From: an uncultured Prevotellaceae bacterium
GTDB taxonomy: Bacteria; Bacteroidota; Bacteroidia; Bacteroidales; Bacteroidaceae
NCBI GenBank assembly: GCA_900316285.1
Contig: ONCG01000025.1
Location: 1-64,000 of the forward strand
DNA length: 64,000 bases
Direction: 5' to 3'
The translations under genes were made by a program, and so were the position numbers. Position 1 is the stretch's first letter, and each line of letters opens with the position of its first letter. This document shows positions 17,941-55,560 of this stretch, piece by piece. Under the pieces are notes generated by a model, which was not told the DNA's origin, did not search any database, and saw only the letters and a program-made list of their open reading frames with translations.

Positions 17941-18050
17941 GTCGATACGGAGATATGCTTTAGTCAATACGGAGATATGCTTTAGTCAATACGGAGATAT
18001 GCTTTAGTCGATACGGAGATATGCTTTAGTCGATACAGAGATATGCTTTA
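17941..18050 (+). repeat. Array of five 22 bp tandem repeats
   Basis: Five contiguous 22 bp units, nearly identical. Each has ATACGGAGATATGCTTTA preceded by GTCG or GTCA; the last unit has CAGAG for CGGAG. Units start at 17941, 17963, 17985, 18007 and 18029. There are no spacers, so this is not a CRISPR array. The unit aligns with arrays at 41.4 and 55.2 kb. Confidence 0.95.
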
Positions 18051-18091
18051 GGTTCACGTGGGAGGGTTTCCACGGTGTCCTTTTCTTAGGC

Positions 18092-18130
18092 TGTGACAAT
18101 TGTGACAATTGTGACAGTCATTTTTTTACG
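18092..18130 (-). repeat. TTGTCACAA tandem tract
   Basis: On the minus strand, GTAAAAAAATGACTG is followed by repeated TGTCACAATTGTCACA. This matches the tracts at 14.05-14.13 and 24.40-24.45 kb, including the TGACTG and GTAAAAA flank. It lies between the 22 bp array and the AT-rich stretch. Confidence 0.85.
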
Positions 18131-18149
18131 CACATCGGCTGGCGAGGGG

Positions 18150-18335
18150 ATCAATATACAAAGAACAAGTATATTTATTAAATATTTATTAAATAAGAAT
18201 TATCATATTAAATAATCTTATTAATCATCATCAACGCAATCTTCATCATAACAATCATCATCATTACAATAATAATCATCAAATTATTATATATACATAT
18301 TTATATATTTATATTTATTTGTTTACTATTTTTCT
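18150..18335. other. AT-rich low-complexity tract
   Basis: About 185 bp almost without G or C, made of TATTTATTAAATA, AATCATCATCA and TATATATTTATA runs. It has no open frame. Its position beside iteron-like 22 bp repeats and upstream of a primase-like gene resembles a DNA-unwinding element, but that reading is an inference. Confidence 0.6.
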
Positions 18336-18351
18336 TCGCCTCCCCATTTTC

Positions 18352-18463
18352 TGAGGCGTGCAAAATTCGACTGTCCAATTGTCACAATTGTCACACTCGT
18401 GGGCGGCACGCGTGTGGAGGCGCGCAAAATTCGACTGTCCAATTGTCACAATTGTCACACCGA
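18352..18463 (+). repeat. 65 bp direct duplication with TTGTCACAA
   Basis: GAGGCGTGCAAAATTCGACT at 18352 recurs as GAGGCGCGCAAAATTCGACT at 18417. Each is followed by GTCCAATTGTCACAATTGTC. This is another form of the TTGTCACAA repeat, placed directly upstream of the HIRAN-like gene. Confidence 0.85.
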
Positions 18464-18490
18464 AAAATTTGGGCATTCGCCTACTTATTT

Positions 18491-18547
18491 GTATCTTTGC
18501 AGTCGATATGAAAAAAACAGTATCTTTGCAATCACTATGGAAAAAAT
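18491..18547 (+). promoter_or_regulatory. Duplicated promoter and short leader frame
   Basis: A 28 bp segment with TATCTTTG, six to eight bases and an ATG followed by AAAAAA occurs twice, at 18491 and 18520. The first copy supplies the likely -7 element (18492-18499) and an ATG that opens a 17-codon frame (MKKTVSLQSLWKKYDSM) overlapping the true start. The second copy supplies the ATG of the HIRAN-like gene at 18537. The short frame could act as a leader controlling translation. Confidence 0.6.
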
Positions 18548-19868
18548 ACGATTCGATGTAGTGGGATTATACCACTGGGATGTGCGCAGCCACTGGAAGG
18601 AATATGCTGCCGGAGCCGTGGGAAAGCAGTTGGTGCTGCAGCCGCACCCTGAGAACATGAAAGACCCGCTGGCCATCCGTGCACGCGAGGGAAGGCTGCA
18701 TGTGGGCTATGTGGCCGTGCCCGACCTCGACATCGTTCATCAGGCCTTGAAGGGTAGTGGCCGGAAGCGGTTGCACGGCGTGGTGGTAGAGAGCAACCCC
18801 GAACCGCCCGTGCTCACCGTAGAGTGCGAGGTAGAGGCTATCGACTGGGACTATGACCCTTTCGACAACAGCGCCTATGTTGGCTGGCACTACGACGGGT
18901 TGCCACTCATCCCCAAACGGCTGGAGCAGCTGGACGATCTGACCGCCGACCTGATTGACGGGCTGGAGACCCCTGCCGCCCCTGGAGACAATGGTTTGGA
19001 AGAGCTGACCAAGGAATTGCTGGAGTCGAACCTCTACGATATGAGTCGCGACATGATTCGTGCCCGCTTTCGCATAGAGCGCCTGCTGAAAGCGCAGGGC
19101 AATGCGGCATTGCAGGCCGCAGCCCAAAAGCTGAGCCATCAGAAAGGCATGCTCATGCGCCACGAGAACCGCGACCTGGTGGCTCGCTACCTGTTCCTCG
19201 ACCACCCCACGGCGCTAAGGCAGAAAGGCCTTGAGGACAGCCACTACACCTACGACAACCGCCTTGACGAGCTGGAACAGCAGTTGCGGGCGTTCCCCTA
19301 TCAGCTCTACGACAAGTTCCTGAGCGACCCCGTCGACTTCCTGCGCGAGGTGTACTACAAGCACGTGCCGCGCAAATACCTCAACCAACTCCTCTCGGGC
19401 ATCGTGCTGATGATTCTGAAAGGCCGCGTAAATATCAAGAAATGGGGCCGCGAGGGCGACACAGAGCCCATCAAGCGGATAGAGGCCTTGGTTCCGACCA
19501 TCAATCCTACCGACCGCGAGAAGGCCATGAAAGCCGCCATCCGCGAACTCTTAGAGATGAGGAACGCGCGCGGGAACCTTATTATATCTCAGAAGAACCA
19601 GTGGGCAGGCATCTTGAGCATACTCACGTTCGACTATAACGTGCCCAGCAACGACCTGCGCGACCTCTGCCGCAAGATGCAGGCATGGGGCTTCGGCGAG
19701 GGCAGCGGACTGAAGTGCTACTGCGACTACGACAGCGTGAGCAAATGTTCCGACTATGCCAACCTGCCCTTCAGCCAGTGGCGCGGCTCGGGCACCGCCT
19801 ACAAGCGACAAGTGAAAGCCGCCACCGAGCTTCGCGGCATCCTGCGACCGCGAATCGGCTACCGTTGA
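18537..19868 (+). CDS. HIRAN-like domain protein of unknown function
   Basis: Protein of 443 residues starting MEKIRFDVVGLYHWDVRSHW. Residues about 8-75 look like a HIRAN domain: an LVLQPHPENMKDPLAIRARE stretch, then GRLHVGYVAVPDL, comparable to the HIRAN pattern of REP-DNP-DxxAI followed by GYVP. HIRAN domains bind DNA ends, as in HLTF/Rad5. The remaining 360 residues are mostly helical with a charged middle (RKYLNQLLSGIVLMILKGRV) and a C-terminal CYCDYDSVSKCSDYANL. I do not recognise them. No signal peptide or membrane helix is seen. The start follows a duplicated promoter. It is followed 193 bp later by the primase/helicase-like gene in the same direction, and the pair is isolated from other functions by repeat blocks. 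The HIRAN assignment is tentative. Confidence 0.6.
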   Translation: MEKIRFDVVGLYHWDVRSHWKEYAAGAVGKQLVLQPHPENMKDPLAIRAREGRLHVGYVAVPDLDIVHQALKGSGRKRLHGVVVESNPEPPVLTVECEVEAIDWDYDPFDNSAYVGWHYDGLPLIPKRLEQLDDLTADLIDGLETPAAPGDNGLEELTKELLESNLYDMSRDMIRARFRIERLLKAQGNAALQAAAQKLSHQKGMLMRHENRDLVARYLFLDHPTALRQKGLEDSHYTYDNRLDELEQQLRAFPYQLYDKFLSDPVDFLREVYYKHVPRKYLNQLLSGIVLMILKGRVNIKKWGREGDTEPIKRIEALVPTINPTDREKAMKAAIRELLEMRNARGNLIISQKNQWAGILSILTFDYNVPSNDLRDLCRKMQAWGFGEGSGLKCYCDYDSVSKCSDYANLPFSQWRGSGTAYKRQVKAATELRGILRPRIGYR

Positions 19869-19987
19869 CGCCTCTGGAAAGAGCCGAAATGAGGGAGTTT
19901 CCAATGCCGACATTCCATTGCCGTTCGAACGTTCCAACGAACATTCCAACGGCTTTTTTCATGCTTGGGGGTATAAGAATGATTTCG

Positions 19988-19995
19988 TAAATTTG
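19988..19995 (+). promoter_or_regulatory. Promoter -7 element for primase-like gene
   Basis: TAAATTTG followed by CATTG lies 66 bp before the ATG at 20062. It follows a region with CCGTTCGAACGTTCCAACG and a GGCTTTTTTC, which can end the upstream transcript. The gene may therefore be transcribed separately from the HIRAN-like gene. Confidence 0.55.
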
Positions 19996-20061
19996 CATTG
20001 TCATTCGGCCGATGACATGAGATGATTAACACATTCTACGAACAAACAAAAAACGACAAGC

Positions 20062-22350
20062 ATGAATAAAACAACATTTTCATTTTCAAAGTCAATTCTG
20101 ACTCCCGCTCAGATGCAACCCTGCACGCCTGAGCTACTGAACGCTGCGCTCGACAGCCAGCAAGTTGCCAACACCTGCCGGGAGATTGCCCGCAGGCTGG
20201 AAGAAGTTAAAAATGGTACGCTCACGCGCGAGGACTTCGAGAAGCTGAAGACGCAGCTGAAAGCCGACAACCTGCCCGTGGTGTGCTTCCACGCTTCGTT
20301 CTCCGACGGCTATCGCCACAATCAGTCGGCGGTACCCAGCGGGCTCTCCATCTACGATGCCGACCACCTGCCGCTCGACCCTCGTGTCTACTACATCAAC
20401 AAAGTGGCGGGCCGCGAAGCCGAGCTGGGCATATGCCTGGCTCACGTCTCACCCAGTGGTGAGGGCATCCGCCTGGTATTCGAAGTGCCGCAGGGAATGT
20501 CGCTCGCCGAGGCTCAGCAATGGATGGCTGGGCAGCTGGCCGACGACAGCTACGACGGTTGCGTGAAAGACTTGGCTCGCTGCTCGTTCCTCGTGGGTCG
20601 CGACTATGTGCTCTATTACGACGAAGAGGAACTCTTCAAGGAGCGCCAAGCCGTTGTGCCCGAGAGTGCTGTGACAATTGTGACAAAGGACAATGCGATT
20701 TCTGCGCCCCTGCCCCCGACTGCCGACGAGCCTGCGGTCTACGAGGAGGACTTCGACGGCATCCCCTATCCGCAGATCGTGCGGGCAATGGAGGAGCAGC
20801 TCGGCGGTGTGCCTGCCCAAGGAGCCCGCAACAACTTCATCTTCACGATGGCATGCTTCCTGCGCTACGTTTGCAACGACGACCCGCAATGGATTGCCCG
20901 GGTGATGCCCCGATATGGTGAGGAGGAGCAGAAATTCCTCTCTACCCTTCGATCGGCCTGCAACCGCCCGCAAACAAAGGCGGTGCCCGAACTCGTCAGC
21001 CGTGCACTCGACCAAGCCCGGCGGCAGCAACAAGTTGAGACGGCCATCATAGCCAACGGCGTGAATGCGGCACAACCGCCCAAGATGCCGCGCCGACTGA
21101 CGAAGTTCATGCGCCTCATCACCCAGAACGTGCCCGACGAACTGAAACCAGCTGTAGCGATGGCCGTATTCCCGGCTTTAGGTGCCCATTGCAAGGGCGT
21201 GAAGTTCCGCTACAACGACAACGCCCTCGTCGAGCCAACGTTCATGAATGTACTGGTGGCTGAGATGTCGAGCGGAAAATCGTGCGTCAACGAACCCATC
21301 AACGCCATCATGGCCGACATCAAGGAGCGTGATACCGAAAACCGCCGTCTGATGCAAGAATACAAAGAGGAATACGACACCTGCCCCGCCAACGAAAAGA
21401 AGCCCGATCGCCCCAGAGGGTTGGCCGTGCAATGGGTGAAATCGGATATGACGCCCGCGGCTTTCGTACAACTCATGGCCGATGCCGGAGGAAGATTCCT
21501 CTACAGCCGTATGGATGAGATTGGCTTGCTCAACCAGCTGAAGACCAACGGCAAGGGAAACAACGTGACCGAGATTCTGCGCTTGGCCTACGACTGCGGC
21601 GAATACGGCCAGGAGCGCGTGGGAACCAAGTCGGTCAGCGAATGCGTGGAAGTGCGATGGAACTGGAATGCGTCGACAACGCCGGGCAAGTGCCGCAACT
21701 TCTTCAAGGACTCCATGCTCGACGGAACACTCTCGCGCATCTCGTTCAGCACCATCTACACCGACGACGACCGCATGCCCGTCTACGGCTCCTACGACGA
21801 AGTTTTCCAGCAGCAGGTGAAGGCCTCTGTCGAACATCTCAACGATGCCACAGGACTCATCGTCTGCAAGAAAGCAAACCTGCTGGCCGCAAAAATGATT
21901 GAGGAAAACCGAATGTTCACTTCACTTGCTGACGACGACACCTATCGCGAACTCTCCTATCGCGCCACCCTCTCGGCCTTCAAGCGAGGCATGGTGCTCT
22001 ATCTGCTCAACGACAGGAGGTGGTCGCGCGACATCGAGAACTTCGTGCGCTGGTCGTTCCACTACGACATGTGGTGCAAGATGTGGATTTTCGGCGAGAG
22101 AATGCGGCGGGCGATGGAGAAAGACCAAGCCATCGTGGTGCCTGGGCGACGCAACCTCATGGAACTGCTGCCCGACACGTTCACCCTCGACGACCTCAAC
22201 ATCGTGCGTCGAGCACAGGGCATCAGCGGCAACGGCAACTCCCAACTCCGCAAGTGGGTAAGTCGCGGCTACTGCACGCTCGACACCGCAAGCCAGAAGT
22301 ATATGAAGGGCCCAGAGTTTCTGAGCAACCACCCGAGCAAGACGGCATAA
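20062..22350 (+). CDS. Primase/helicase-like protein (BT4734-like N-terminus plus DUF3987)
   Basis: Protein of 762 residues. Residues about 70-190 match the BT4734/VirE-N family, related to archaeo-eukaryotic primases: SGLSIYDADHLPLD with the acidic pair, HVSPSGEGIRLVFEV, and DLARCSFLVGRDYVLYYDEE. Residues about 240-310 resemble a PriCT-type helical region (GARNNFIFTMACFLRYV). From about residue 350 a DUF3987 helicase-like domain has a P-loop variant AEMSSGKS (about residue 402) and SRMDEIGLLNQL as a possible Walker B segment. Relatives occur in phage, plasmids and islands of Bacteroidales. A TGTGACAATTGTGACA tract inside the gene (20669-20684) encodes VTIVT and copies the surrounding intergenic repeats. 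No integrase or relaxase is near. Role inferred: replication or DNA processing in an inherited module. Confidence 0.75.
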   Translation: MNKTTFSFSKSILTPAQMQPCTPELLNAALDSQQVANTCREIARRLEEVKNGTLTREDFEKLKTQLKADNLPVVCFHASFSDGYRHNQSAVPSGLSIYDADHLPLDPRVYYINKVAGREAELGICLAHVSPSGEGIRLVFEVPQGMSLAEAQQWMAGQLADDSYDGCVKDLARCSFLVGRDYVLYYDEEELFKERQAVVPESAVTIVTKDNAISAPLPPTADEPAVYEEDFDGIPYPQIVRAMEEQLGGVPAQGARNNFIFTMACFLRYVCNDDPQWIARVMPRYGEEEQKFLSTLRSACNRPQTKAVPELVSRALDQARRQQQVETAIIANGVNAAQPPKMPRRLTKFMRLITQNVPDELKPAVAMAVFPALGAHCKGVKFRYNDNALVEPTFMNVLVAEMSSGKSCVNEPINAIMADIKERDTENRRLMQEYKEEYDTCPANEKKPDRPRGLAVQWVKSDMTPAAFVQLMADAGGRFLYSRMDEIGLLNQLKTNGKGNNVTEILRLAYDCGEYGQERVGTKSVSECVEVRWNWNASTTPGKCRNFFKDSMLDGTLSRISFSTIYTDDDRMPVYGSYDEVFQQQVKASVEHLNDATGLIVCKKANLLAAKMIEENRMFTSLADDDTYRELSYRATLSAFKRGMVLYLLNDRRWSRDIENFVRWSFHYDMWCKMWIFGERMRRAMEKDQAIVVPGRRNLMELLPDTFTLDDLNIVRRAQGISGNGNSQLRKWVSRGYCTLDTASQKYMKGPEFLSNHPSKTA

Positions 22351-22390
22351 ACGACAATGACGCTGAACGAAGCGTTCACCATTCACACAA

Positions 22391-22422
22391 ACAGGGGGGT
22401 AACGAATCGTTACACCCCCTGT
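22391..22422. terminator. Palindrome between convergent genes
   Basis: A 32 bp near-palindrome (ACAGGGGGGTAACGAATC and its counterpart ending CACCCCCTGT) lies 41 bp after the primase-like gene and 33 bp from the mltG stop. It can end both converging transcripts, although no long T-run follows. Confidence 0.55.
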
Positions 22423-22455
22423 CGTTATGTCGAATGTACTAATTCTCCTACAGCA

Positions 22456-23502
22456 TCACTGGATGCCCCGGCTGTTCAGCGCCTTCGAGTAGCGGGCGGC
22501 ATTCTGCAGATGCTCGCTATAGGTGGCGGCGAAGTTGTGGGTGCCGCTGAAGTCCTCCTTCGCACACATGTAGAGATAGTTGTGGTGGGCGTAGTTCAGC
22601 ACGGCGTCGATGCCAGCAACGGTGGGAATGCGAATGGGTCCTGGCGGCAGACCAGCCCGGCGATAAGTGTTATACGGGCTGTCGATGGAGAGCAGCTTGT
22701 TGTAGATGCGCTTCAACTCGAACTTCTGCCACGCAAACTTGATGGTGGGGTCGGCCTGCAAAGGCATACCGTTGGGGTACTCGCCGTTCCTCAAGTTCAG
22801 GCGGTTGAGGTACATGCCGGCAATCATGGGCTTCTCGGCATTGTTGGCGGTTTCCTCATCCACGATGCTCGCCAACGTGATGACCTCCACGGGCGTAAGA
22901 CCCATCTTGTCGGCCTTTGCCTGGCGGTCGCCCTTCCAAAAGGCATCGCTCTCCTTCTTCATGCGGTCGAGGAACTTCTCGAGGCCCACATTCCAATACA
23001 GCTCGTAGGTGTTGGGCACGAACATGCAGGCGATGGTAGCCGGCTCGTAGCCGTATTTCTGACACGTAGCGGTGTCGGTGAGAGCCTCAACAATGGTGGC
23101 GCTGTCGAGCATGAGCTTCTTCGAGAGTTCGGCACCCAGACGGTCGACGGTGCGCACAGAAGGAATGGTGAGGTTGAGCGGCTCCTGCTGGCCGTTTTTC
23201 AGGCGTCGGAACACCGTGAGCGCGCAGTCGTTGTCGTCGATGGCGTAGCGGCCCGAACGAATGTTGTCGGCATAGCCGCTGTGGCGGATGAGCGTCTTCA
23301 TTCCGCTGATGGCGTGGTTGTTGCCGATGCGTGAGAGCTTCACGAATACGGAGTCCACCGTGTCGTCGTTGTCGACGTATAGGTATTCCGTCTGCCCACT
23401 CTTGCTCAGGGGCGTTAGGAAGAAATAGGCGAGAATGGCACAAAACAGCAGCAAGCAGCCTATTCCCGACATCAGATAAATGGATTTCTGTTTCTTTTTC
23501 AT
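22456..23502 (-). CDS. mltG: Endolytic transglycosylase MltG
   Basis: Protein of 348 residues from ATG 23502, chosen because a promoter lies just upstream and the preceding frame is unlike the family. A membrane helix (about residues 11-31: SGIGCLLLFCAILAYFFL) anchors it in the inner membrane with the catalytic part outside. The YceG-like domain has FVPNTYELYWN and LASIVDEETANNAEKP; the glutamate near residue 215 corresponds to the catalytic residue of E. coli MltG. The C-terminal PYNTYRRAGLPPGPI is a family hallmark. It cleaves nascent glycan strands and sets their length. It converges on the primase-like gene and diverges from gph. Confidence 0.93.
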   Translation of the reverse strand: MKKKQKSIYLMSGIGCLLLFCAILAYFFLTPLSKSGQTEYLYVDNDDTVDSVFVKLSRIGNNHAISGMKTLIRHSGYADNIRSGRYAIDDNDCALTVFRRLKNGQQEPLNLTIPSVRTVDRLGAELSKKLMLDSATIVEALTDTATCQKYGYEPATIACMFVPNTYELYWNVGLEKFLDRMKKESDAFWKGDRQAKADKMGLTPVEVITLASIVDEETANNAEKPMIAGMYLNRLNLRNGEYPNGMPLQADPTIKFAWQKFELKRIYNKLLSIDSPYNTYRRAGLPPGPIRIPTVAGIDAVLNYAHHNYLYMCAKEDFSGTHNFAATYSEHLQNAARYSKALNSRGIQ

Positions 23503-23523
23503 TGTTGATATTGATTTATCTTG

Positions 23524-23656: not shown

Positions 23657-23688
23657 CACACTGAAAGCAAAATAAGCAGATTCATAGC

Positions 23689-24350: not shown

Positions 24351-24768
24351 GTAGGTGCAGACCCCCGTGTCTGCCCGAAGGCCCCAATATGTTAGCAACC
24401 CCATTTGTGACAATTGTGACAATTGTGACTGTCATTTTTACACACTCACGCGTAGGGACAGCCCCCTGTGTCTGCCCGAATGGGGTACGCTTTCGCGTCT
24501 TTAAGAAAACATCAAAAAACATAGAAAACATGAAAAAACAATGGGTTTTCTTATGTGTTTTTTGTTTTCTTTTGTTTTTGAAAAGCCCGCGTAGCGGATA
24601 AAACGTGCAGACACGGGGGTCTGCCCCTACAGTGGGGGAAGGGTATCGTGTCCCCCTCGGGGCGACTGGGGTCTTTAGAGCAGCCACCGGTGTGGCTGCG
24701 GCCCCACAAAGGGGAGCAAATTCCTCATTTGCGACGGGGGACGACAGGGGGGCTAAAAAAAGACCGCA
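24351..24768. repeat. Composite repeat block, inverted copies of 13.8 and 17.8 kb blocks
   Basis: From left to right: a GGGCAGAC-type palindrome (24351-24377), a TTGTGACAA tract (about 24402-24430), a second palindrome (24452-24478), the inverted counterpart of 17759-17936 (to 24630) with a third palindrome (24604-24630), and the counterpart of 13817-13942 (24631-24768, with TCCTCATTTGCGACGGGGG). No gene is present between gph and rng. Confidence 0.9.
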
Positions 24769-39163: not shown

Positions 39164-41332
39164 ATGAACACCTTCAAATCCCTCTTCGTGGCTGCCCTGC
39201 TCATGCTCGGCACCACCGCACAAGCACAAGAAATGATTCAGAAGCAAAACATCCGTCTCTCCTCCGACCGTATGACGCCCGAGGCCCTTTGGGCAATGGG
39301 CCGCATCGGCGGCTATGCTGCCTCGCCCGACGGCAAGCACATCGTCTACAACGTCGCCTACTACAGCGTGAAGGAGAACAAGAGCCACCATATTCTATAT
39401 GTGATGGACGCCGACGGACAAAACCAGCGTAAGCTCACCACCTCGGCAAAGAGCGAAACCGATGCCGCCTGGCTCTCGAACGACCGCATCGCCTTCATCA
39501 CCGGAGGCGAGGTCTGGGCGATGAACATCGACGGCAGCAACCGCCAGCAACTCTCGAAGACCGACGGCGAAGTGGAGGGATTCCTCTTCTCGCCCGACCA
39601 GACGAAGGTCATCCTGCTGAAGTCGCTACCCTACTACGGCAGCATCCGCAAGCGTCCCGACGACCTGCCAAAGTCAACCGGCCGACTGGTCACCGACATG
39701 AACTACCGCCACTGGGACCACTACGTGGAGAGCATCGTGCACCCGTTCCTCTGCTCTGTTAGCGGCGAGGCCATTGCCGCCGACGGCAAGGACCTGCTCA
39801 ACGGCGAGCCCTACGAGTGCCCCACAGCACCCTTCGGAGGCATCGAGCAGCTGGCGTGGAGCACCGACTCGAAGTCGATTGCCTACACCTGCCGCAAGAA
39901 GGAAGGCGTGGAGTACGCCATCTCCACCGATACCGACATCTTCCTCTACGACACCGCCACAGGCAAGACAAGCAACCTCTGCAAGCCCGAAGGCTATGTG
40001 GAACCGAAGAGCGATGCCACGAAGACCATGAAGTATCAGGCCGTGAACGCTGAATCGAACCTGCAGAACAACCCCGGCTACGACCAGAACCCGAAGTTCT
40101 CGCCCGACGGCCGCTATGTGGCCTGGCTCTCGATGGCCCGCAACGGCTATGAGAGCGACCGCCAGCGCCTGTGCGTCTATGAGCTGAAGACGGGTCAGAA
40201 GCGCTACGTCACAGAGTCGTTCGATTCCAACGTCGACGACTTCGTGTGGAGCGACTCTAAGGATGCCATGATCTATTTCATTGGTGTGTGGCACGCCACC
40301 GAAAACCTCTATGCCGTCAACTGGAAAGGCGAACTGAAGCAGCTCACCAACGACTGCGCCGACTTCGGATCGCTGCAGCTGCTGAACAACGGGCGTCAGC
40401 TCGTGATGGAGCGCCACGACTACTTCCATCCTGCCGACCTCTATGTCGTCACGCCCAACTTCAAGAAGCCTGAGAAGACCGACATCCAGCAGATCACGCA
40501 AGAGAACAAGCACATTCTCGACCAGCTGGCAAGCGGAACCTCCGAGCAGCGCTGGGTGAAGACCACCGACGGCAAGGAGATGCTCTACTGGGTGATCTTG
40601 CCGCCGCACTTCGACGCTACGAAGAAGTACCCCACCCTGCTCTTCTGCGAAGGCGGACCGCAGAGTCCCGTGAGCCAGTTCTGGAGCTATCGCTGGAACT
40701 TCTTCATCATGGCCTCTCAGGGATATGTCGTCATCGCTCCTAACCGTCACGGCCTGCCGGGCTTCGGCTCTGAGTGGTGCGAAGAGATCTCAGGCGACTG
40801 GACAGGCCAGTGCATGGACGACTACCTCACCGCCATCGACGATGCCTGCGAGCAGCTGCCCTATGTCGACCGCGACCGACTTGGTGCCGTAGGTGCCTCG
40901 TTCGGTGGATTCAGCGTGTACTACCTCGCCGGCCATCACGACAAGCGCTTCAAGTGCTTCATCGCCCACGACGGTGCCTTCAACCTCGAGTCGATGTATA
41001 CCGATACCGAGGAGGTGTGGTTCTCCAACTGGGAGTATGAAGACGCCTACTGGGCTAAGGACCAGACGGCCAACGCCCGCAAGACTTACGAGAACTCCCC
41101 GCATCGCTTCGTCGACAAGTGGGACACCCCCATCCTCTGCATACACGGCGAACTGGACTACCGCATCAATGCCAACCAGGGCATGGGAGCCTTCAACGCT
41201 GCACGTCTGCGTGGCATCCCCGCCGAACTCCTCATCTTCCCCGACGAGAACCACTGGGTATTGAAGCCCCAGAACGGCATCCTCTGGCAGCGCACCTACT
41301 TCGAGTGGCTCGACCGCTGGCTGAAGAAATAA
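39164..41332 (+). CDS. S9 family dipeptidyl peptidase (DPP5-like)
   Basis: Protein of 722 residues with signal peptide MNTFKSLFVAALLMLGTTAQA. The N-terminal two thirds form a beta-propeller with repeated SPDG segments (ASPDGKHIVYNVAYY, FSPDGRYVAWLSM). The C-terminal alpha/beta hydrolase has the serine in GASFGGFS (about residue 580), the aspartate in HGELDYRINANQ and the histidine in DENHWVLKP. This is the S9C / dipeptidyl peptidase 5 type, which releases dipeptides in the periplasm and supports peptide feeding. It ends at a terminator built from a 22 bp repeat array. Confidence 0.92.
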   Translation: MNTFKSLFVAALLMLGTTAQAQEMIQKQNIRLSSDRMTPEALWAMGRIGGYAASPDGKHIVYNVAYYSVKENKSHHILYVMDADGQNQRKLTTSAKSETDAAWLSNDRIAFITGGEVWAMNIDGSNRQQLSKTDGEVEGFLFSPDQTKVILLKSLPYYGSIRKRPDDLPKSTGRLVTDMNYRHWDHYVESIVHPFLCSVSGEAIAADGKDLLNGEPYECPTAPFGGIEQLAWSTDSKSIAYTCRKKEGVEYAISTDTDIFLYDTATGKTSNLCKPEGYVEPKSDATKTMKYQAVNAESNLQNNPGYDQNPKFSPDGRYVAWLSMARNGYESDRQRLCVYELKTGQKRYVTESFDSNVDDFVWSDSKDAMIYFIGVWHATENLYAVNWKGELKQLTNDCADFGSLQLLNNGRQLVMERHDYFHPADLYVVTPNFKKPEKTDIQQITQENKHILDQLASGTSEQRWVKTTDGKEMLYWVILPPHFDATKKYPTLLFCEGGPQSPVSQFWSYRWNFFIMASQGYVVIAPNRHGLPGFGSEWCEEISGDWTGQCMDDYLTAIDDACEQLPYVDRDRLGAVGASFGGFSVYYLAGHHDKRFKCFIAHDGAFNLESMYTDTEEVWFSNWEYEDAYWAKDQTANARKTYENSPHRFVDKWDTPILCIHGELDYRINANQGMGAFNAARLRGIPAELLIFPDENHWVLKPQNGILWQRTYFEWLDRWLKK

Positions 41333-41381: not shown

Positions 41382-41505
41382 AAGAGCTATGCTCCATTCG
41401 AACTAGAGCTATGCTCCATTCAATACAGAGCTATGCCCCATTCAACTAAAAGCTATGCTCCATTCAATACAGAGCTATGCTCCTTTCACACTGGAGCATA
41501 GCTCC
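41382..41505 (+). repeat. 22 bp tandem array, second locus
   Basis: Five units of 22 bp start at 41382, 41404, 41426, 41448 and 41470. The shared core is AGAGCTATGCTCCATTC with a variable tail (AATA, AACT, GAAC). The array ends in an inverted copy of the core (GGAGCATAGCTC, 41493-41504). The unit matches the 17.9 kb array at the core GAG.TATGCT. Confidence 0.93.
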
Positions 41506-48080: not shown

Positions 48081-48135
48081 AACACTAAACTCTCAGCACT
48101 CAACTCTAAACTCTCAACTCTCAACTCTCAACTCT
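48081..48135 (-). repeat. Seven-base repeats at the nth 3' end
   Basis: Units of ACTCTCA/ACTCTAA repeat between DUF2461 and nth, the reverse complement of the 10.44 kb heptamers. They run into the nth gene and supply its last codons and stop (VES, then TGA). Confidence 0.8.
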
Positions 48136-48759
48136 CTTCGGGCAAATCCCATCGAAGGGGCACTTCTCGCAATGAGGCTTGCGGCTGGTGCAGACGTAGC
48201 GCCCGTGCAGCAGCAGCCAATGGTGAGCATTCGGCACATCTTCTGCAGGAATGTTGCGCATGAGCTCCAGCTCCACCTTCAGCGGCGTGTTAGCACGCTC
48301 AGGAACAAGGCCGAGCCGATGGCTGACGCGAAACACATGAGTATCGACGGCCATCGCCGCACGACCAAACCACACTGCCTGCATGACGTTGGCTGTCTTG
48401 CGGCCCACACCCGGCAAGCGTACGAGCTCATCCATATCGCTGGGCACCTCGCCTCCGAAGTCGTTCACCAACATGCGCGACATCTCAACAAGACGCTTCG
48501 CCTTTGAGTTGGGATAGCTGACGCTGCTCACATACTCCAGCACCTCTTCGGGCTCTGCCTGCGACATCGCCTGCGCATCAGGATAGCGGGCAAAGAGGGC
48601 GGGCGTCACCTGGTTGATGCGCTTATCGGTGCATTGGGCACTGAGCAAAGTAGCACAAAGGAGTTGGAAGGCTGAGCCAAATTCCAACTCCGTTGTCACC
48701 ACGGGCTGACGCTCGCGGAAATAGTCTAAGATGTACTGATAGCGTTCTTTCTTGGTCAT
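48121..48759 (-). CDS. nth: Endonuclease III
   Basis: Protein of 212 residues. It is a DNA glycosylase/AP lyase for oxidised pyrimidines. The helix-hairpin-helix has LPGVGRKTANVMQ with the catalytic lysine, followed by the aspartate in AVDTHVFRVSHRLGL. The iron-sulfur cluster cysteines appear as C-x6-C-x2-C-x5-C in CTSRKPHCEKCPFDGIC. The last residues are encoded by the heptamer repeat. The ompH-type gene ends 6 bp before the nth start on the same strand, so they probably form an operon. Confidence 0.97.
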   Translation of the reverse strand: MTKKERYQYILDYFRERQPVVTTELEFGSAFQLLCATLLSAQCTDKRINQVTPALFARYPDAQAMSQAEPEEVLEYVSSVSYPNSKAKRLVEMSRMLVNDFGGEVPSDMDELVRLPGVGRKTANVMQAVWFGRAAMAVDTHVFRVSHRLGLVPERANTPLKVELELMRNIPAEDVPNAHHWLLLHGRYVCTSRKPHCEKCPFDGICPKRVES

Positions 48760-49410: not shown

Positions 49411-49520
49411 TTCTTTTTTTGTTATTTGTTAATTATCAATTTTCAATCTTATTCTTGAAACTAGACACTCGACCCGCAAAGACTCTTTCGTAGCGCAGCG
49501 GAGAAAGAACTAGAAACTAT

Positions 49521-49563
49521 AAACTAGAAACTACTCTCAACTCTAAACTCTAAACTCTCAACT
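49521..49563 (-). repeat. Short repeats (ACTCTAA heptamers and related)
   Basis: AACTAGAAACTATAAACTAG, then ACTCTCAACTCTAAACTCTA runs up to the small membrane protein gene. Just before, 49486-49510 contains CTTTCGTAGCGCAGCGGAGA, also present near 61.34 kb. Confidence 0.7.
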
Positions 49564-49756: not shown

Positions 49757-49834
49757 TTTTTGTAATTTTGCCTGCAAAGTTAATTAAAACCTCTCAATTA
49801 CCGAAAGAATAACGCAATAAAATAACATAATTAA

Positions 49835-51283
49835 ATGAATAAAAACGAATTGAAACCTGCATGCGTGTTCGAACAGTTCGCACGCATCAACGAAATTCCC
49901 CGCCCTTCAAAGCGCGAGGAAAAGATGATTGAGTATCTGAAAAACTTTGGTAAAAGCCGCGGTCTTGCTACGAAAGTAGACGAAACGGGCAACGTGCTCA
50001 TCTGCAAACCTGCTACGCCGGGAATGGAGAACAAGCCGACCATCATCCTGCAAAGCCATATGGATATGGTGTGCGAGAAGTTGGTCGACGTCGACTTCGA
50101 TTTCGACCGTGATGCCATCCAGACTTACGTCGACGGTGAGTGGCTCTGCGCAAAGGGCACCACGCTCGGTGCCGACGACGGCATCGGCTGCGCCATCGAG
50201 CTGGCTATCCTCGACAGCAACGACCTCGTTCACGGTCCGCTGGAGTGCGTCTTCACACGCGACGAGGAGACTGGTCTGACGGGTGCCGAAGGCATGAAGG
50301 CCGGCTTTATGACGGGCGACATGCTCATCAACCTCGACTCGGAGGACGAAGGACAGATCTTCGTCAGCTGTGCTGGCGGACGCAACACCACCGCTACGTT
50401 CCACTATGAGCGCGAGGACGCTCCAAAGGGTGCTTTCTTCCTGAAGGCTTCGCTGAAGGGTCTTGTTGGCGGCCACTCGGGTGACGACATCAACAAGAAG
50501 CGCGCCAATGCGCTGAAGATCCTCGCCCGCTTCCTCTATCAGACACAGGAGCGCTACGGACTTTGCCTCGCTCAGTATAATGCCGGCAAGCTGCACAACG
50601 CTATCCCCCGCGACGGCGTCATCGTGTTCGCCGTTCCTGAGGATAAGAAGGAGAACGTGCGCGCCGATTGGAACGTTTTCGTCAGCGAGGTGGAAGAAGA
50701 ATACCACGTGACGGAGAAGACCATGCAGTTCAACATGGAGAGTACCGATGCCGAGAAGGTGCTGCCTCAGGCAGTCAGCACACGTCTGGTGCAGGCCATG
50801 CAGGCTGTCGACAACGGCGTGTTCGCCATGTGTCAGGACGAGGCTGTGGCCTGGCTGGTTGAGACCTCGAACAACGTGGCAAGCATCGTCACCGGCGAGA
50901 AGGAAGCCAAGGTGACCTGCTCGCAGCGCTCGAACGTGATGAGTGCCCTCGACAACCAGGCTGCCACCATCAAGGCTGTGTTCCAGCTGGCTGGCGCCGA
51001 GGTCGTACAGGGTGAAGGCTATCCCGCTTGGAAGATGCGCGCCGACAGCAAGCTCACGGCGCTGACCGTAGAGACCTACAAGCAGCTCTTCGGCAAGGAG
51101 CCGAAGGTACTGGGCATCCATGCTGGTTTGGAGTGCGGTCTGTTCTCGGAGAAGTATCCGAACCTCGATATGGTGAGCTTCGGTCCGACGCTGCGCGGCG
51201 TTCACTCGCCCGACGAGCGTCTGCTCATCCCCACCGTACAAATGGTGTGGGATCATCTGCTCGCTATTCTTAAAAATGTCTGA
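49835..51283 (+). CDS. pepD: Aminoacyl-histidine dipeptidase (M20)
   Basis: Protein of 482 residues. It is a cytosolic metallo-dipeptidase acting on Xaa-His and other dipeptides. Metal ligands are seen in LQSHMDMVCEK (residues about 70-80), TLGADDGIGCAIELA and TRDEETGLTGAEGM. The dimerisation or lid domain follows (LKGLVGGHSGDDINKKRANA). The C-terminus has HAGLECGLFSEKYPNLDMVS and GVHSPDERL, as in PepD. No signal peptide. A small lipoprotein gene follows after 26 bp. Confidence 0.96.
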   Translation: MNKNELKPACVFEQFARINEIPRPSKREEKMIEYLKNFGKSRGLATKVDETGNVLICKPATPGMENKPTIILQSHMDMVCEKLVDVDFDFDRDAIQTYVDGEWLCAKGTTLGADDGIGCAIELAILDSNDLVHGPLECVFTRDEETGLTGAEGMKAGFMTGDMLINLDSEDEGQIFVSCAGGRNTTATFHYEREDAPKGAFFLKASLKGLVGGHSGDDINKKRANALKILARFLYQTQERYGLCLAQYNAGKLHNAIPRDGVIVFAVPEDKKENVRADWNVFVSEVEEEYHVTEKTMQFNMESTDAEKVLPQAVSTRLVQAMQAVDNGVFAMCQDEAVAWLVETSNNVASIVTGEKEAKVTCSQRSNVMSALDNQAATIKAVFQLAGAEVVQGEGYPAWKMRADSKLTALTVETYKQLFGKEPKVLGIHAGLECGLFSEKYPNLDMVSFGPTLRGVHSPDERLLIPTVQMVWDHLLAILKNV

Positions 51284-51309
51284 GTGTCATCACCAATGAT
51301 TCGGAGAAC

Positions 51310-51687
51310 ATGAACAAGACGAAAGTTGTCATCACCGCAATGCTTGTTGCGGTGATGGCTTTCTCTTCCTGCAATAAGGAAAAATCTGCAGCAAAGGAGC
51401 TGGTGAAGGAGTTCCTGAAGGAAAACCTCGTGAGCGAAGATTACAAGGTGTTGTACTGTTACGACTTGTCAACGACGAAGTTCGTCACCGACTCGATGTG
51501 CCAAGAGATGCGCGCCAAGATGGCAAGCAACAAACGGTTCAAGCCCAACATGCACTATGCCGAGGGTCCCGCGTCGAAGAATTTGCATTTCATCCGTGTG
51601 AAATACCGCGTCGACAAGGATACTGTTTACCAAACCTTCTATCTCGACGAGCAGCAAACACGCGTGGTGGCATTCAAGGAGAATTAA
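51310..51687 (+). CDS. Small lipoprotein of unknown function
   Basis: Protein of 125 residues with a lipobox: MNKTKVVITAMLVAVMAFSS followed by CNKEKS, cysteine at residue 21. The mature part contains two or three beta strands (YKVLYCYDLSTTKFVTD, LHFIRVKYRVDKDTVYQTFY). I do not recognise a domain. It follows pepD closely and precedes the tkt promoter, so it may be co-transcribed with pepD. Confidence 0.75.
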   Translation: MNKTKVVITAMLVAVMAFSSCNKEKSAAKELVKEFLKENLVSEDYKVLYCYDLSTTKFVTDSMCQEMRAKMASNKRFKPNMHYAEGPASKNLHFIRVKYRVDKDTVYQTFYLDEQQTRVVAFKEN

Positions 51688-51738
51688 GAGAATAACTACT
51701 TTTTCACCGTTTCATTTCCCTAACTGCATTTTTTTTGC

Positions 51739-51746
51739 TACCTTTG
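51739..51746 (+). promoter_or_regulatory. tkt promoter -7 element
   Basis: TACCTTTG after TTTTTTTTGC, 48 bp before the tkt ATG at 51795. It excludes the in-frame upstream start. Confidence 0.7.
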
Positions 51747-51794
51747 CAAACAAGAATAAGAATCAATAATTCTATAACAAAACACTATCAAACA

Positions 51795-53804
51795 ATGAAC
51801 GACAACAAAGTAATGATGCGTGCAGCCGACAACATCCGCATTCTGGCTGCAGCAATGGTCGAAAAGGCCAAGAGTGGTCATCCTGGTGGCGCTATGGGCG
51901 GTGCCGATTTCATCAATACACTTTATTCGGAGTTCCTCGTATACGATCCCGAACATCCCGAGTGGGAAGGTCGCGACCGCTTCTTCCTCGATCCCGGCCA
52001 CATGGCCCCGATGCTCTACTCGCAGCTCTGCCTCATCGGCAAGTACACGCTGGAGGACCTGCAGAACCTGCGTCAGTGGGGAAGCGTCACTCCCGGACAC
52101 CCCGAGCGCGAAATCGCACGCGGCATTGAGAACACCAGCGGTCCTCTCGGACAGGGCCACACCTTCGCCGTGGGTGCTGCTATCGCTGCTAAGTTCCTGA
52201 AGGCTCGCCTGGGCGACGTGATGAATCAGACCATCTATGCATACATCTCTGACGGTGGTGTGCAGGAGGAAATCTCGCAGGGCGCTGGCCGTATCGCCGG
52301 TAACCTGGGTCTCGACAACCTCATCATGTTCTACGATGCCAACGACATCCAGCTCTCCACCCGTACGGAAGTGGTGACCTGCGAGGACACCGCTAAGAAG
52401 TATGAGGCTTGGGGATGGTTCGTACAGAACATCGACGGCAACGACGTCGACCAGATTCGCGAGGCTCTCCGCAAGGCTCAGGCCGAGAAGGAACGTCCAA
52501 GTCTCATCATCGGTCATTGCGTCATGGGTAAGGGTGCCCGTAAGGCCGACGGCTCCAGCTACGAGAGCAACTGCGCTACACACGGTGCTCCGCTTGGCGG
52601 CGACAACTTCGTGCAGACAATGAAGAACCTCGGTGCCGATCCAGAGAATCCCTTCCAGGTATTCCCCGAGGTGCAGGAACTCTACGCAAAGCGTGCTGAG
52701 GAACTGAAGAAGATCTGCGCCGAGCGCTATGCTCAGAAGGCTGAATGGGCAAAGGCCAATCCCGAAAAGGCTGCTCTCATGGAAGAGTGGTTCAGCGGCA
52801 AGGCTCCGAAGATCGACTGGACAGCTGTTCAGCAGAAGGCTGGTGCCGCCACACGTGGTGCTTCGGCAACCGTTCTGAGCGTACTCGCCGAGCAGGTTCC
52901 CAACATGATTTGTGCTTCGGCCGACCTCTCGAACTCTGATAAGACCGACGGCTTCCTGAAGAAGACGCACAACATCGTGAAGGGCGACTTCACGGGTGCA
53001 TTCTTCCAGGCTGGTGTGGCTGAGCTCACAATGGCTTGCTGCTGCATCGGTATGGCTCTGCACGGTGGTGTCATCCCCGCTTGCGGTACGTTCTTCGTAT
53101 TCAGTGACTACATGAAACCCGCCGTTCGTATGGCTGCTCTGATGGAACTGCCCGTGAAGTTCATCTGGACTCACGACGCCTTCCGTGTGGGCGAGGATGG
53201 TCCTACGCATGAGCCCGTTGAGCAGGAGGCACAGATCCGCCTGATGGAGAAGCTGAAGAACCACCACGGCCGCAACTCGATGCTCGTGCTGCGTCCCGCC
53301 GATGCCGAGGAGACCACCGTCTGCTGGCGTATGGCAATGGAGAACACGCTCACGCCGACGGCCCTCATCTTCTCGCGTCAGAACATCGACATGCTGCCCG
53401 AGGGCAACGACTACAATCAGGCCACCAAGGGTGCTTATGTGGTTGCCGGTAGCGATGAGGACTACGATGTCATCCTGTTGGCCAGCGGCTCTGAGGTTTC
53501 CACACTCGAGGCTGGTGCCAAGCTCCTCCGCGCCGACGGCGTGAAGGTTCGCCTGGTGAGCGTTCCCTCCGAGGGATTGTTCCGTTCGCAGCCCGTTGAG
53601 TATCAGCAGAGCGTGCTCCCCGCAGGCAAGAAGAAGTTCGGTATGACCGCTGGTCTGCCCGTCACCCTCGAAGGTCTTGTAGGCGCCGACGGTTGCGTCT
53701 GGGGTCTCAACAGCTTCGGCTTCTCCGCTCCCTACAAGGTGCTCGACGAGAAGCTCGGCTACAACGGCCAGAACGTCTATGAGCAGGTGAAGAAGCTGCT
53801 GTAA
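51795..53804 (+). CDS. tkt: Transketolase
   Basis: Protein of 669 residues starting MNDNKVMMRAADNIRILAAA. Thiamine-diphosphate binding is seen in KAKSGHPGGAMGGADF (residues about 23-38) and the GDG-like YISDGGVQEEISQGAG, NLIMFYDANDIQLS region. The pyrimidine-binding half contains GVAELTMACCCIGMALHGG, FFVFSDYMKPAVRMAALM and THDAFRVGEDGPTHEPVEQ. It exchanges two-carbon units in the non-oxidative pentose phosphate pathway. rpiB, which acts in the same pathway, follows after a four-helix-bundle gene. Confidence 0.97.
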   Translation: MNDNKVMMRAADNIRILAAAMVEKAKSGHPGGAMGGADFINTLYSEFLVYDPEHPEWEGRDRFFLDPGHMAPMLYSQLCLIGKYTLEDLQNLRQWGSVTPGHPEREIARGIENTSGPLGQGHTFAVGAAIAAKFLKARLGDVMNQTIYAYISDGGVQEEISQGAGRIAGNLGLDNLIMFYDANDIQLSTRTEVVTCEDTAKKYEAWGWFVQNIDGNDVDQIREALRKAQAEKERPSLIIGHCVMGKGARKADGSSYESNCATHGAPLGGDNFVQTMKNLGADPENPFQVFPEVQELYAKRAEELKKICAERYAQKAEWAKANPEKAALMEEWFSGKAPKIDWTAVQQKAGAATRGASATVLSVLAEQVPNMICASADLSNSDKTDGFLKKTHNIVKGDFTGAFFQAGVAELTMACCCIGMALHGGVIPACGTFFVFSDYMKPAVRMAALMELPVKFIWTHDAFRVGEDGPTHEPVEQEAQIRLMEKLKNHHGRNSMLVLRPADAEETTVCWRMAMENTLTPTALIFSRQNIDMLPEGNDYNQATKGAYVVAGSDEDYDVILLASGSEVSTLEAGAKLLRADGVKVRLVSVPSEGLFRSQPVEYQQSVLPAGKKKFGMTAGLPVTLEGLVGADGCVWGLNSFGFSAPYKVLDEKLGYNGQNVYEQVKKLL

Positions 53805-53810
53805 AACATT

Positions 53811-53930
53811 GTCGGACGGGTCGGTTTTCCGACTCGTCCGACTTGCTTAATTGTCCAACCTGCCTGCCCCGTCCGACCTGTCCGACTTGTCTGACTAGTC
53901 CGACAAGTCCGACAAGTCCGACAAGTCCGG
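53811..53930 (+). terminator. Hairpin and GTCCGACAA repeats after tkt
   Basis: GTCGGACGGGTCGG (53811-53824) pairs with CCGACTCGTCCGAC (53829-53842), one G-T pair, four-T loop. It is a likely tkt terminator although only TTGCTTAATTG follows. Degenerate GTCCGAC(AA/CT) repeats continue to about 53930, becoming perfect 9-mers at the end. Confidence 0.65.
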
Positions 53931-53978
53931 TCCCAAATCAACCATCCACTCACCTCCCAATCAAAATAATACAATCCC

Positions 53979-54533
53979 ATGAACACCTTCCTGCACAACA
54001 ATGGCGGCTATCGCAAACTAAGAGTTTATCAAGTGACAGTCATCATTCATGACATCACTTACTACTTTGCCAATCGCTATTTTGTGAAAGGAGATCGTAC
54101 CATCGACCAGATGATACAAGCTGCAAGGTCAGGGAAGCAAAACATTGCTGAAGGAAGTGAAGCATCAACCACCTCGCGTGAAACAGAGATCAAGCTAACG
54201 AATGTGGCAAAGGCGAGTCTGGAAGAATTGCTCGTCGATTACGAAGACTACCTGCGACAACATGGCTTGTCTAAATGGGATGCAAATCATCCGCGTTATG
54301 AGAGAATGCGTGCTTTTGTGTGCAGCAACCAGTTCAATGAGGATTATCAGAATTTGATCCCGAGACTCAATGAGGAAGAGTTATGCAATTTGTGCATAAC
54401 ACTCATTAACCAGTCAACCTATATGCTTCGCAAACTGATAGAACGTCAGCAGCAGCAATTCTTACAGGAGGGAGGAATTAGGGAGCAGATGTACAAGGCT
54501 CGTCTAGCAGCGAGGACAGTTCCGACAAAATAA
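53979..54533 (+). CDS. Four-helix-bundle protein (23S rRNA IVP family)
   Basis: Protein of 184 residues. The core YRKLRVYQVTVIIHDITYYF, VKGDRTIDQMIQAARSGKQN, NIAEGSEASTTSRETEI and ASLEELLVDYEDYLRQH matches the four-helix-bundle family named after proteins in 23S rRNA intervening sequences; Avd of diversity-generating retroelements shares the fold. A C-terminal suffix (CNLCITLINQSTYMLRKLIE) is typical of the Bacteroidales version. It probably binds nucleic acid as a pentamer. It sits between tkt and rpiB, is AT-richer than both, and is preceded by repeats, which suggests insertion. No reverse transcriptase is near. Confidence 0.88.
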   Translation: MNTFLHNNGGYRKLRVYQVTVIIHDITYYFANRYFVKGDRTIDQMIQAARSGKQNIAEGSEASTTSRETEIKLTNVAKASLEELLVDYEDYLRQHGLSKWDANHPRYERMRAFVCSNQFNEDYQNLIPRLNEEELCNLCITLINQSTYMLRKLIERQQQQFLQEGGIREQMYKARLAARTVPTK

Positions 54534-54567
54534 GCCATCTCAACATTATAAATCATCTAAATCAGAA

Positions 54568-55023
54568 ATGATGAAAGAAGTAAAAACACCATCAACAATC
54601 GGCATCGCCTCCGATCACGCTGGCTTTGCCTTAAAACAGTTCGTGAAGAAATACCTCGAGGAGAAAGGCTTCGAATACAAGGACTACGGCACCTATACCG
54701 AGGACTCGTGCGACTACTCAGACTTCGGTCACGCCCTGGCTCGCGGCATCGAGGAAGGTGAAGTCTATCCTGGCATCGCTATCTGCGGTTCGGGCGAAGG
54801 TATCAACATGACGCTCAACAAGCACCAGTCCATTCGTGCTGGCCTCTGCTGGATTCCCGAAATTGCCCACCTCATCCGCCAGCACAACAACGCCAATGTG
54901 CTCGTGATGCCTGGCCGCTTCATCGATGAAGACATGGCCCGTAAAATCATGGATGAGTTCTTCGCCACCGAATTCGAAGGCGGACGCCACCAGCGCCGTA
55001 TCGATAAGATTCCCGTGCAGTAA
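54568..55023 (+). CDS. rpiB: Ribose 5-phosphate isomerase B
   Basis: Protein of 151 residues. Typical motifs are IGIASDHAGFALKQFVKKY, YKDYGTYTEDSCDYSDF, the active-site cysteine in GIAICGSGEGINMTLNK, and NVLVMPGRFIDEDMA. It interconverts ribose and ribulose 5-phosphate, and acts with transketolase, whose gene lies upstream. A strong terminator follows. Confidence 0.96.
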   Translation: MMKEVKTPSTIGIASDHAGFALKQFVKKYLEEKGFEYKDYGTYTEDSCDYSDFGHALARGIEEGEVYPGIAICGSGEGINMTLNKHQSIRAGLCWIPEIAHLIRQHNNANVLVMPGRFIDEDMARKIMDEFFATEFEGGRHQRRIDKIPVQ

Positions 55024-55059
55024 TTTTTCTGCAAGGGGAATCCCTTCAAATCAACTAAA

Positions 55060-55105
55060 ACAGGTTGACGCATTCTGATGTTATGGAATGCATCAACCTG
55101 TTTTT
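55060..55105 (+). terminator. Terminator of rpiB
   Basis: ACAGGTTGACGCATTC (55060-55075) pairs with GAATGCATCAACCTGT (55086-55101), one mismatch, 10-base loop. A-rich bases precede and TTTTC follows. Strong stem. Confidence 0.9.
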
Positions 55106-55186
55106 CTTTATAATCACGAAAAAACAAGAGTGCTTTTGCACTCAAGATATCGAACCATTTCTTGTGCGACTCACAAAAGAGCTTGA

Positions 55187-55560
55187 AAAGCAATGAGTTA
55201 GTGATGCTGGAGCAGTGCTTTGATGCGTGTGGAGCAGTACTTTGGTGAGTGCGGAGCAATGCTTTGGTGGGTAGAGAGCAATGAGGTTGAGAAGTAAATT
55301 AAGTGAGTTTGTTTTATAAATTAACTTGAATTGAAAAGTAAATTAAGTTAATTTGATGAGTAAATTAAGTTAATTTATAGAGTAAAATAAGTTAATTTAC
55401 TAAGTAAAATAAGTTAATTTACCGAACAAATTAAGTTAATTTGCTGAATAAAGTAAGTTGTTTTATAAAATGAGAACAATATTCTTCATTCACTGGAACA
55501 TTGCTTTGTAATCACGAGAGCAATATTCTACATTCACGAGAGCAGTGGTTTAGGAGAAAG
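55187..55560 (+). repeat. 17-unit array with exact 22 bp period
   Basis: Seventeen consecutive 22 bp units start at 55187. Units 1-5 resemble GGAGCAGTGCTTTGATG; units 6-13 change to AATTAAGTTAATTTGATG-type; units 14-17 return to AGAGCAATATTCTACATTC-type. The register never slips, although neighbouring blocks differ strongly. No spacers and no open frame. This occupies most of the 850 bp between rpiB and the AlaX-like gene. Confidence 0.92.

What the first reader, a model, noticed from the sequence alone, without database searches (positions are those of the whole stretch)
17941..55560. A family of exact 22 bp tandem arrays at three distant intergenic loci
Arrays at 17941-18050 (5 units), 41382-41505 (5 units plus an inverted core) and 55187-55560 (17 units) all have a strict 22 bp period. 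Their units can be aligned to a shared core, roughly RGAGCWATGCTYYANTC. The conservation of period and core across 37 kb, with different sequences between the loci, is not explained by any gene or by CRISPR (no spacers). The period is about two helical turns, so repeated protein contacts on one DNA face, or a repetitive RNA, are possible.
Basis: partly seen in the sequence, partly recalled or inferred. Interest (0 to 1): 0.8.

Follow-up and report, generated by a model that had tools for sequence, protein, structure and literature searches.

The report
Prevotella 22-bp palindromic repeat arrays
Three places in this rumen Prevotella DNA carry short, often mirror-symmetric sequences repeated every 22 bases, part of a genome-wide set whose spacing is shared with related species while the sequence itself changes, which suggests evenly spaced docking sites for an unknown protein or an unusually regular satellite DNA.

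Summary
The three arrays belong to a family in the host genome (Prevotella by its nearest relatives): 105 exact two-unit matches, 0 in the reversed control. In 41 stretches examined, nearest cores are exactly 22 bp apart in 260 of 286 steps up to 90 bp. The unit is a 13-bp dyad core, RRAGCWATGCTYY, plus a 9-bp linker. Array C is composite: GAGC-type units, eight AAATTAAGTTAATTT-type palindromes, GAGC-type units, on one lattice of dyad centres; this recurs elsewhere. Other Prevotellaceae show the same 22-bp period with different cores. In two orthologous arrays linkers diverge more than cores (24/165 against 5/190, centre bases left out), but cores with centre (11/247) diverge about as much as flanks (159/3461), so selection on cores is not proven. 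Best reading: phased sites for an unidentified symmetric DNA-binding protein, in arrays that grow and spread as satellites; a purely mutational satellite is a close rival. The general kind, fixed-length species-specific bacterial repeats, is published (PMC8161180). The two-family dyad lattice in Prevotella was not found in my literature searches.

The parts
17942..18051 (+). Array A: five 22-bp units, TCRATACRGAGATATGCTTTAG
41382..41491 (+). Array B: five 22-bp units around AGAGCTATGCTCCATTC, starting about 50 bp after the stop of the 722-aa gene 39164-41332
41493..41505 (+). Inverted core GGAGCATAGCTCC followed by TTTTT; pairs with the last unit of array B and may act as a terminator
   Evidence: terminator scan 2 found against 0.7 (sd 0.9) in shuffles, so weak
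55182..55291 (+). Array C, left block: five degenerate GAGC-type units
55292..55467 (+). Array C, centre: eight AAATTAAGTTAATTT-type palindromic units
55468..55555 (+). Array C, right block: four degenerate GAGC-type units

Best explanation
Dispersed intergenic arrays of dyad-symmetric DNA sites on a rigid 22-bp lattice. Each unit is a core (13 bp in this genome, different in other species) that a symmetric, probably dimeric, DNA-binding protein is inferred to recognise, plus a linker whose length but not sequence is kept. Neighbouring dimers would bind cooperatively about two helical turns apart and form a short filament, as on plasmid iterons or nucleoid-protein sites (comparison recalled, not tested). 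Arrays lengthen by local duplication of 22-bp units, and the AT-centred composites look as if they had been copied to several intergenic sites. Shown: lattice, core and linker, dyad symmetry of the core, intergenic position, composite architecture, turnover of cores between species. Inferred: the protein, cooperativity, and any effect on nucleoid or transcription.
For: Exact 22-bp step in 260 of 286 neighbour steps; in the 5 mixed arrays of this genome and L232 of a relative all 8 GAGC-to-AT steps are multiples of 22 centre to centre. Sharp core edges: information 0.92 and 1.13 bits at positions 8 and 20, 0.06 and 0.05 at 7 and 21. No pair covariation at core pair 9-19 (MI 0.013, shuffles 0.012) and G-C depleted at 8-20, which argues for sequence reading rather than base pairing. 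0 of 43 arrays overlap a called gene by more than 30 bp and gene context resembles background. Linkers diverge more than cores in orthologous arrays, p = 5e-5.
Against: No protein found or sought beyond Y1_Tnp. Two unrelated cores in one genome and new cores in other species would need two or more proteins or repeated changes of specificity. Cores with their centre bases (11 of 247) diverge about as much as flanks (159 of 3461), so the core-linker contrast comes from fast linkers; it rests mainly on one pair (L118/L227: 2/100 against 19/84; L145/L229: 3/90 against 5/81), which also has an extra unit. Units were chosen by scoring positions 8-21 after a seed GAG..ATGCT, which inflates core conservation. 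GAGC and AT units could share a lattice by common descent.
Confidence: 0.4

Rival explanations
1. Functionless or selfish minisatellite. Palindromic units of about 22 nt multiply by replication slippage or hairpin-templated copying, and arrays spread by rare copying. The period reflects the copying mechanism; sameness of cores in one genome reflects recent spread and conversion; AT units derive from GAGC-type units and so keep the register.
For: Linker identity 0.62 between adjacent units, 0.42 within an array, 0.29 between arrays: local duplication. AT unit order and linkers partly shared between loci. Central triplets occur as reverse-complement pairs, AAT/ATT and TAT/ATA, with TTT once and AAA and TTA never among 321 units, and in L238 of G118 both arms of the palindrome change together (by eye): both expected from template switching in hairpins. 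Core divergence equals flank divergence. Cores differ between species.
Against: Arrays of very diverse units (309 distinct of 321; identical neighbours 6 of 268) keep the exact period, where drift should leave indels. The strongly conserved 13-bp core beside a free linker is not expected from drift alone. In this genome outer core pairs do not covary.
Confidence: 0.36
2. RNA-level element: transcribed hairpins act as terminators, mRNA 3' ends or small RNAs.
For: Array B ends in an inverted core and T run and folds better than all 200 shuffles on both strands; the AT block of C likewise. PMC8161180 reports transcription of 52-nt repeats in Bacillus coagulans (section 15).
Against: Array A folds worse than all 200 shuffles on both strands; GAGC part of C at chance. 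Of 36 arrays with both neighbours called, 12 are convergent, 18 codirectional, 6 divergent, against 17, 42, 14 of 73 gaps. Terminator scan near chance. No Rfam match in the window.
Confidence: 0.12
3. A BrickBuilt-like MITE: a tandem array inside a non-autonomous transposable element moved by an IS transposase.
For: Intergenic multi-copy tandem unit of similar size (23 nt) in another Bacteroidales species, P. gingivalis (PMC4596501 sections 5 and 7 part 1); composites look copied as wholes.
Against: Only 12 of 86 flanks have an array-adjacent match to another array on the same side, three of them the AT block itself and others REP-like elements, further units or one paralogous pair; no shared leader or tail seen. 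The BrickBuilt unit AGAYCATARTATCCTCTCRTRTG differs. 48 of 86 flanks do have some similarity to another flank, so interspersed repeats are common there.
Confidence: 0.08

Closest known systems
Constant-length, variable-sequence bacterial tandem repeats (Subirana and Messeguer, PMC8161180; their J Bacteriol 2020 paper is not held)
   Same: Fixed unit length (20-23 nt in many bacterial groups, 52 nt in Firmicutes), species-specific sequence, several families per genome, mostly non-coding, a short conserved stretch in each unit; the authors also suggest a polymerising protein or small RNA.
   Different: Here: Prevotella, sharp period of 22, palindromic cores, two families on one dyad lattice, AT block flanked by GAGC blocks. 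The paper does not use the words palindrom, Prevotella or Bacteroid.
BrickBuilt minisatellite-MITE of Porphyromonas gingivalis (PMC4596501)
   Same: Intergenic tandem arrays, unit 23 nt with a conserved and a variable half, many sites per genome.
   Different: Other sequence and period; BrickBuilt has leader, tail and IS5-like terminal repeats, not seen here.
REP elements, GTAG- or CGTC-tagged (PMC3733652, abstract and outline only)
   Same: Small extragenic palindromes in many copies.
   Different: REPs are 20-40 bp palindromes with a GTAG or CGTC tag, often in opposed pairs; these are head-to-tail arrays without such tags. REP-like GTAGGGACGCG elements sit beside some arrays as separate repeats.
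Plasmid iterons (recalled)
   Same: Direct repeats near 22 bp spaced by two helical turns for a replication protein.
   Different: Dispersed over a chromosome in tens of copies; no replication protein tested.

Membership tests
Constant-length variable-sequence bacterial tandem repeats | Constant unit length in a species and its relatives | tested here: met
   260 of 286 steps exactly 22 in own genome; in 80 Prevotellaceae loci 33 segments at lag 22, 14 at 21, 1 each at 20 and 23.
Constant-length variable-sequence bacterial tandem repeats | Unit sequence differs between species | tested here: met
   Own core found in 5 of 150 same-genus genomes, own included, and two of these (G076, G118) have control counts as high; CTATC core 108 and 10 matches in two of eight genomes, 0 in six.
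Constant-length variable-sequence bacterial tandem repeats | Not coding | tested here: met
   0 of 43 arrays overlap a called gene by more than 30 bp; home-made gene caller.
BrickBuilt MITE | 23-nt unit of the published consensus | tested here: not met
   Unit is 22 bp, different sequence.
BrickBuilt MITE | Leader and tail with terminal inverted repeats | tested here: not met
   12 of 86 flanks with array-adjacent match, none recognisable as a common leader or tail.
REP elements with RAYT | GTAG or CGTC tag and opposed pairs | tested here: not met
   Core and linker profile of 321 units shows neither tag; arrays head to tail.
REP elements with RAYT | Associated Y1 transposase | tested here: inconclusive
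   Own genome has 3 Y1_Tnp matches; the 4 other same-genus genomes in that search have 0, but were not searched for arrays of their own core.
CRISPR | Repeats separated by unique spacers of about repeat length, with cas genes | tested here: not met
   Variable part is 9 bp; cas genes were not searched for.
Protein-bound phased sites (iteron-like) | Cognate DNA-binding protein occupies the cores | not testable with these tools
   Needs pull-down, ChIP or footprinting.

The most novel reading that the evidence does not exclude
Prevotella chromosomes carry a genus-wide, fast-evolving architectural code: tens of intergenic protein filaments seeded on dyad sites with a fixed 22-bp step, some with an AT-palindrome centre flanked by GC-containing dyads on the same lattice, each species having its own site and matching protein.
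Probability: 0.25. Interest if true: 0.85.

Novelty: new variant of a known kind. Interest (0 to 1): 0.6.

Why it matters
Fixed-length, sequence-free tandem repeats of bacteria have no known function. Here the unit splits into a conserved dyad core and a linker of which only the length is kept, and two unrelated palindromic cores share one lattice of dyad centres. That makes the open question testable: which protein, if any, reads a 22-bp dyad lattice in Prevotella, a major rumen and gut genus; or which copying mechanism makes 22-bp units.

Tried and rejected
CRISPR: rejected on geometry. The core contains GAGCTATGCT, which I recall from the S. pyogenes crRNA repeat; taken as coincidence, not tested. 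BrickBuilt membership: rejected on unit and flanks. Rfam at gathering score: nothing in the window. tRNA or tmRNA: none.

Compensatory hairpin in this genome: pair 9-19 at the shuffle mean; 8-20 MI 0.031 against mean 0.009 and maximum 0.040, in the direction against pairing (G-C depleted); 13-15 at the shuffle maximum; linker pairs 7-21 and 6-22 above the maximum. With a fixed centre the within-array excess of paired cells was +40.8, no more than at two other centres (+41.2, which is the second dyad of the lattice, and +41.9), and came mainly from one linker pair. One search chose the centre that maximises pairing, so its excess is biased and not used.

Palindromes in relatives: 17 of 54 lag-22 segments had p<=0.05 and 9 of 54 p<=0.01 against shuffled consensuses; lag 21 4 of 26, lag 24 0 of 13, lag 14 2 of 20, lag 28 1 of 13, lag 35 0 of 11, lag 42 4 of 18, but lag 18 6 of 11. 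So palindromes are enriched at lag 22, not confined to it, and 37 of 54 did not pass. The palindromes that I read by eye in L100 and in the first array of L107 did not pass (p 0.13 and 0.94); the second array of L107, L066 and L099 did.

Synteny: after the gene beside array B I printed up to 900 bases in 11 of the 80 related loci: GAGC- or AAAGC-type arrays further downstream in L031 and L084, a different-core array in L034, none noticed in the other eight (by eye). In G047 and G095 that gene matches at about 80% and the downstream region does not. Array A flanks gave only short repeat matches there.

Sampling limits: the 80 loci are the best 80 of 241. The 20 same-genus stretches include three genomes chosen for non-zero pattern or control counts, two of them with the stretch placed on a hit, so 14 segments in 0.38 Mb is somewhat enriched; other genera of the family gave 7 in 0.35 Mb, other families of the order 2 in 0.36 Mb. 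The 43 arrays came from an exact two-unit seed, of which 100 of 105 places were listed; array C is not among the 43. Of the 7 AT loci printed, only L159, L161 and L165 were found without GAGC selection.

Literature: searches found no paper on 22-bp arrays in Prevotella; only open-licence papers are searched, and the J Bacteriol 2020 survey that may list Prevotella is not held. Seen: PMC4596501 abstract, section 5, section 7 part 1, passages; PMC8161180 abstract, sections 11 and 15, passages; PMC6749651 abstract, outline, passages; PMC3733652 abstract and outline; others as listing only. Iterons and helical repeat are recalled.

Full report
Setting. The window is contig 10, 1-64000, of a 3.89 Mb genome in 38 contigs, completeness 94. 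The best matches to the gene beside array B are from Prevotella and uncultured Prevotellaceae MAGs, many of them from the rumen.

Observation. Tandem Repeats Finder and direct reading confirm arrays at 17941-18051, 41382-41505 and 55182-55555 with period 22. Array C is not exact: five GAGC-type, eight AT-palindrome and four GAGC-type units.

Genome-wide family. GAGNNATGCT-N12-GAGNNATGCT matches 105 times in the genome and never when read backwards. From 40 fetched stretches and the window I delimited 43 arrays with 321 units, 309 distinct. Positions 8-20 of the unit are conserved, RRAGCWATGCTYY; the other nine carry 0.05 to 0.37 bits. Units were accepted on a score over positions 8-21, so conservation is inflated, but position 21 still has 0.05 bits, and positions 8, 19 and 20, which are not in the seed, have about 0.9 to 1.1. 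In the 41 stretches, nearest core centres up to 90 bp apart are 22 bp apart in 260 of 286 cases, then 44 (10), 23 (8), 21 (2) and six single values; 33 never occurs. None of the 43 arrays overlaps a called gene by more than 30 bp (home-made caller).

Second family and composite lattice. AAATTAASTTAATTT palindromes also recur every 22 bp: 52 forward and 55 reverse two-unit matches, control 0, the strands largely counting the same pairs. In the five mixed arrays found in this genome and in L232 of a relative, all 8 steps between a GAGC centre and an AT centre are multiples of 22; one GAGC-to-GAGC step in L137 is 65. All 7 AT loci that I printed, and array C, show an AT block between GAGC-like units, some of them degenerate; four of the seven had been fetched for their GAGC units. 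Some loci share AT unit order and linkers, L131 and L132 most clearly, so at least these composites look copied as wholes (by eye).

Relatives. In 80 Prevotellaceae loci (1.00 Mb) the lag spectrum has its highest count at 22: 33 segments, against 14 at lag 21, 1 each at 20 and 23, 14 at lag 14 and 19 at the double, lag 44. Units differ by species; some are palindromic, such as AGTACATGG..TTGTACT in L066 (p 0.01), while others that look palindromic by eye, such as L100, did not pass. The own core occurs in 5 of 150 same-genus genomes including the own one; G076 and G118 have backwards-control counts as high as the forward ones, and G137 and G120 have control hits only. Units like TCGTAAGGAG in arrays that I read in G118 and G137 would give such control hits. 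A CTATC-centred pattern gives 108 matches in the genome of L107, 10 in that of L100, 0 in six others, with one control hit in one of those.

Evolution. Two arrays are kept at orthologous sites (L118/L227, 92.6% over 2.7 kb; L145/L229, 95.9% over 1.4 kb). Differences summed: core without centre 5 of 190, three centre bases 6 of 57, linkers 24 of 165, flanks 159 of 3461. Core against linker p = 5e-5, core with centre against linker p = 5e-4, linker against flank p = 2e-6. Core with centre (4.5%) equals flank (4.6%), so the contrast is due to fast linkers, mainly in the pair with an extra unit; unit shuffling or misalignment may add to it. Near array C, left flank and array both occur on one contig of G047 but about 5.7 kb apart.

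Mechanism. The core-linker split, sharp core edges, lack of pairing covariation at the outer core pairs and the shared dyad lattice favour a symmetric DNA-binding protein on neighbouring sites two turns apart. Absence of 33-bp steps shows that the unit length itself is fixed, by protein contacts or by the way units are copied. Linker identity (0.62 adjacent, 0.42 same array, 0.29 other arrays) shows growth by local duplication. Reverse-complement centre triplets and paired arm changes in G118 fit hairpin-templated copying, so a mutational satellite is a close rival. RNA function is less likely in general, though the end of array B may serve as a terminator. I set the odds at 0.40 against 0.36 because core divergence equals flank divergence.

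Known kind. Fixed-length species-specific bacterial tandem repeats of 20-23 and 52 nt are described with the same two functional guesses (PMC8161180). The present set fits that kind and adds palindromic cores, a two-family dyad lattice and composite architecture. It is not BrickBuilt.

Noticed in passing
L119:2316-2403, also L111, L115, L126, L132: REP-like inverted pairs with GTAGGGACGCGGCGTGCCGCGT beside some arrays; a TAGGGACGYG motif lies within 400 bp on 9 of 86 flanks.
   Followed up: partly
14102-14127, 18092-18116, 18372-18395, 18436-18459, 24405-24429: Short runs of TGTCACAAT or its complement, a second small repeat family; TGTGACAATTGTGACA is on 3 of 86 array flanks.
   Followed up: no
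L232 (G047) and window 54804-55109: About 5.7 kb lies between the left flank of array C and the array in G047 that is absent in the window: an insertion or deletion next to the array.
   Followed up: partly
L238:8257-8630 (G118): One array mixes AGGAG-ATGGC-CTCCT, GTGAG-ATGGC-CTCAC and TGAAGCATAGCTTCA units in register, with one mosaic unit: both palindrome arms change together.
   Followed up: partly
55642-55743: A 44-bp unit (AGGAGGGGACTACGCTGGGTGCAACC...) repeated 2.3 times just after array C.
   Followed up: no
10437-10503, 48081-48136, 49508-49563, 61142-61204: Runs of 7-8 bp units (AGTTGAG, AACTCTC, AACTAGA, GTTGAGAG).
   Followed up: no
L065:5681-5789, L057:1697-1788, L063:5680-5781: Non-microsatellite arrays with period 21 in related genomes, perhaps the same phenomenon one base shorter.
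   Followed up: no
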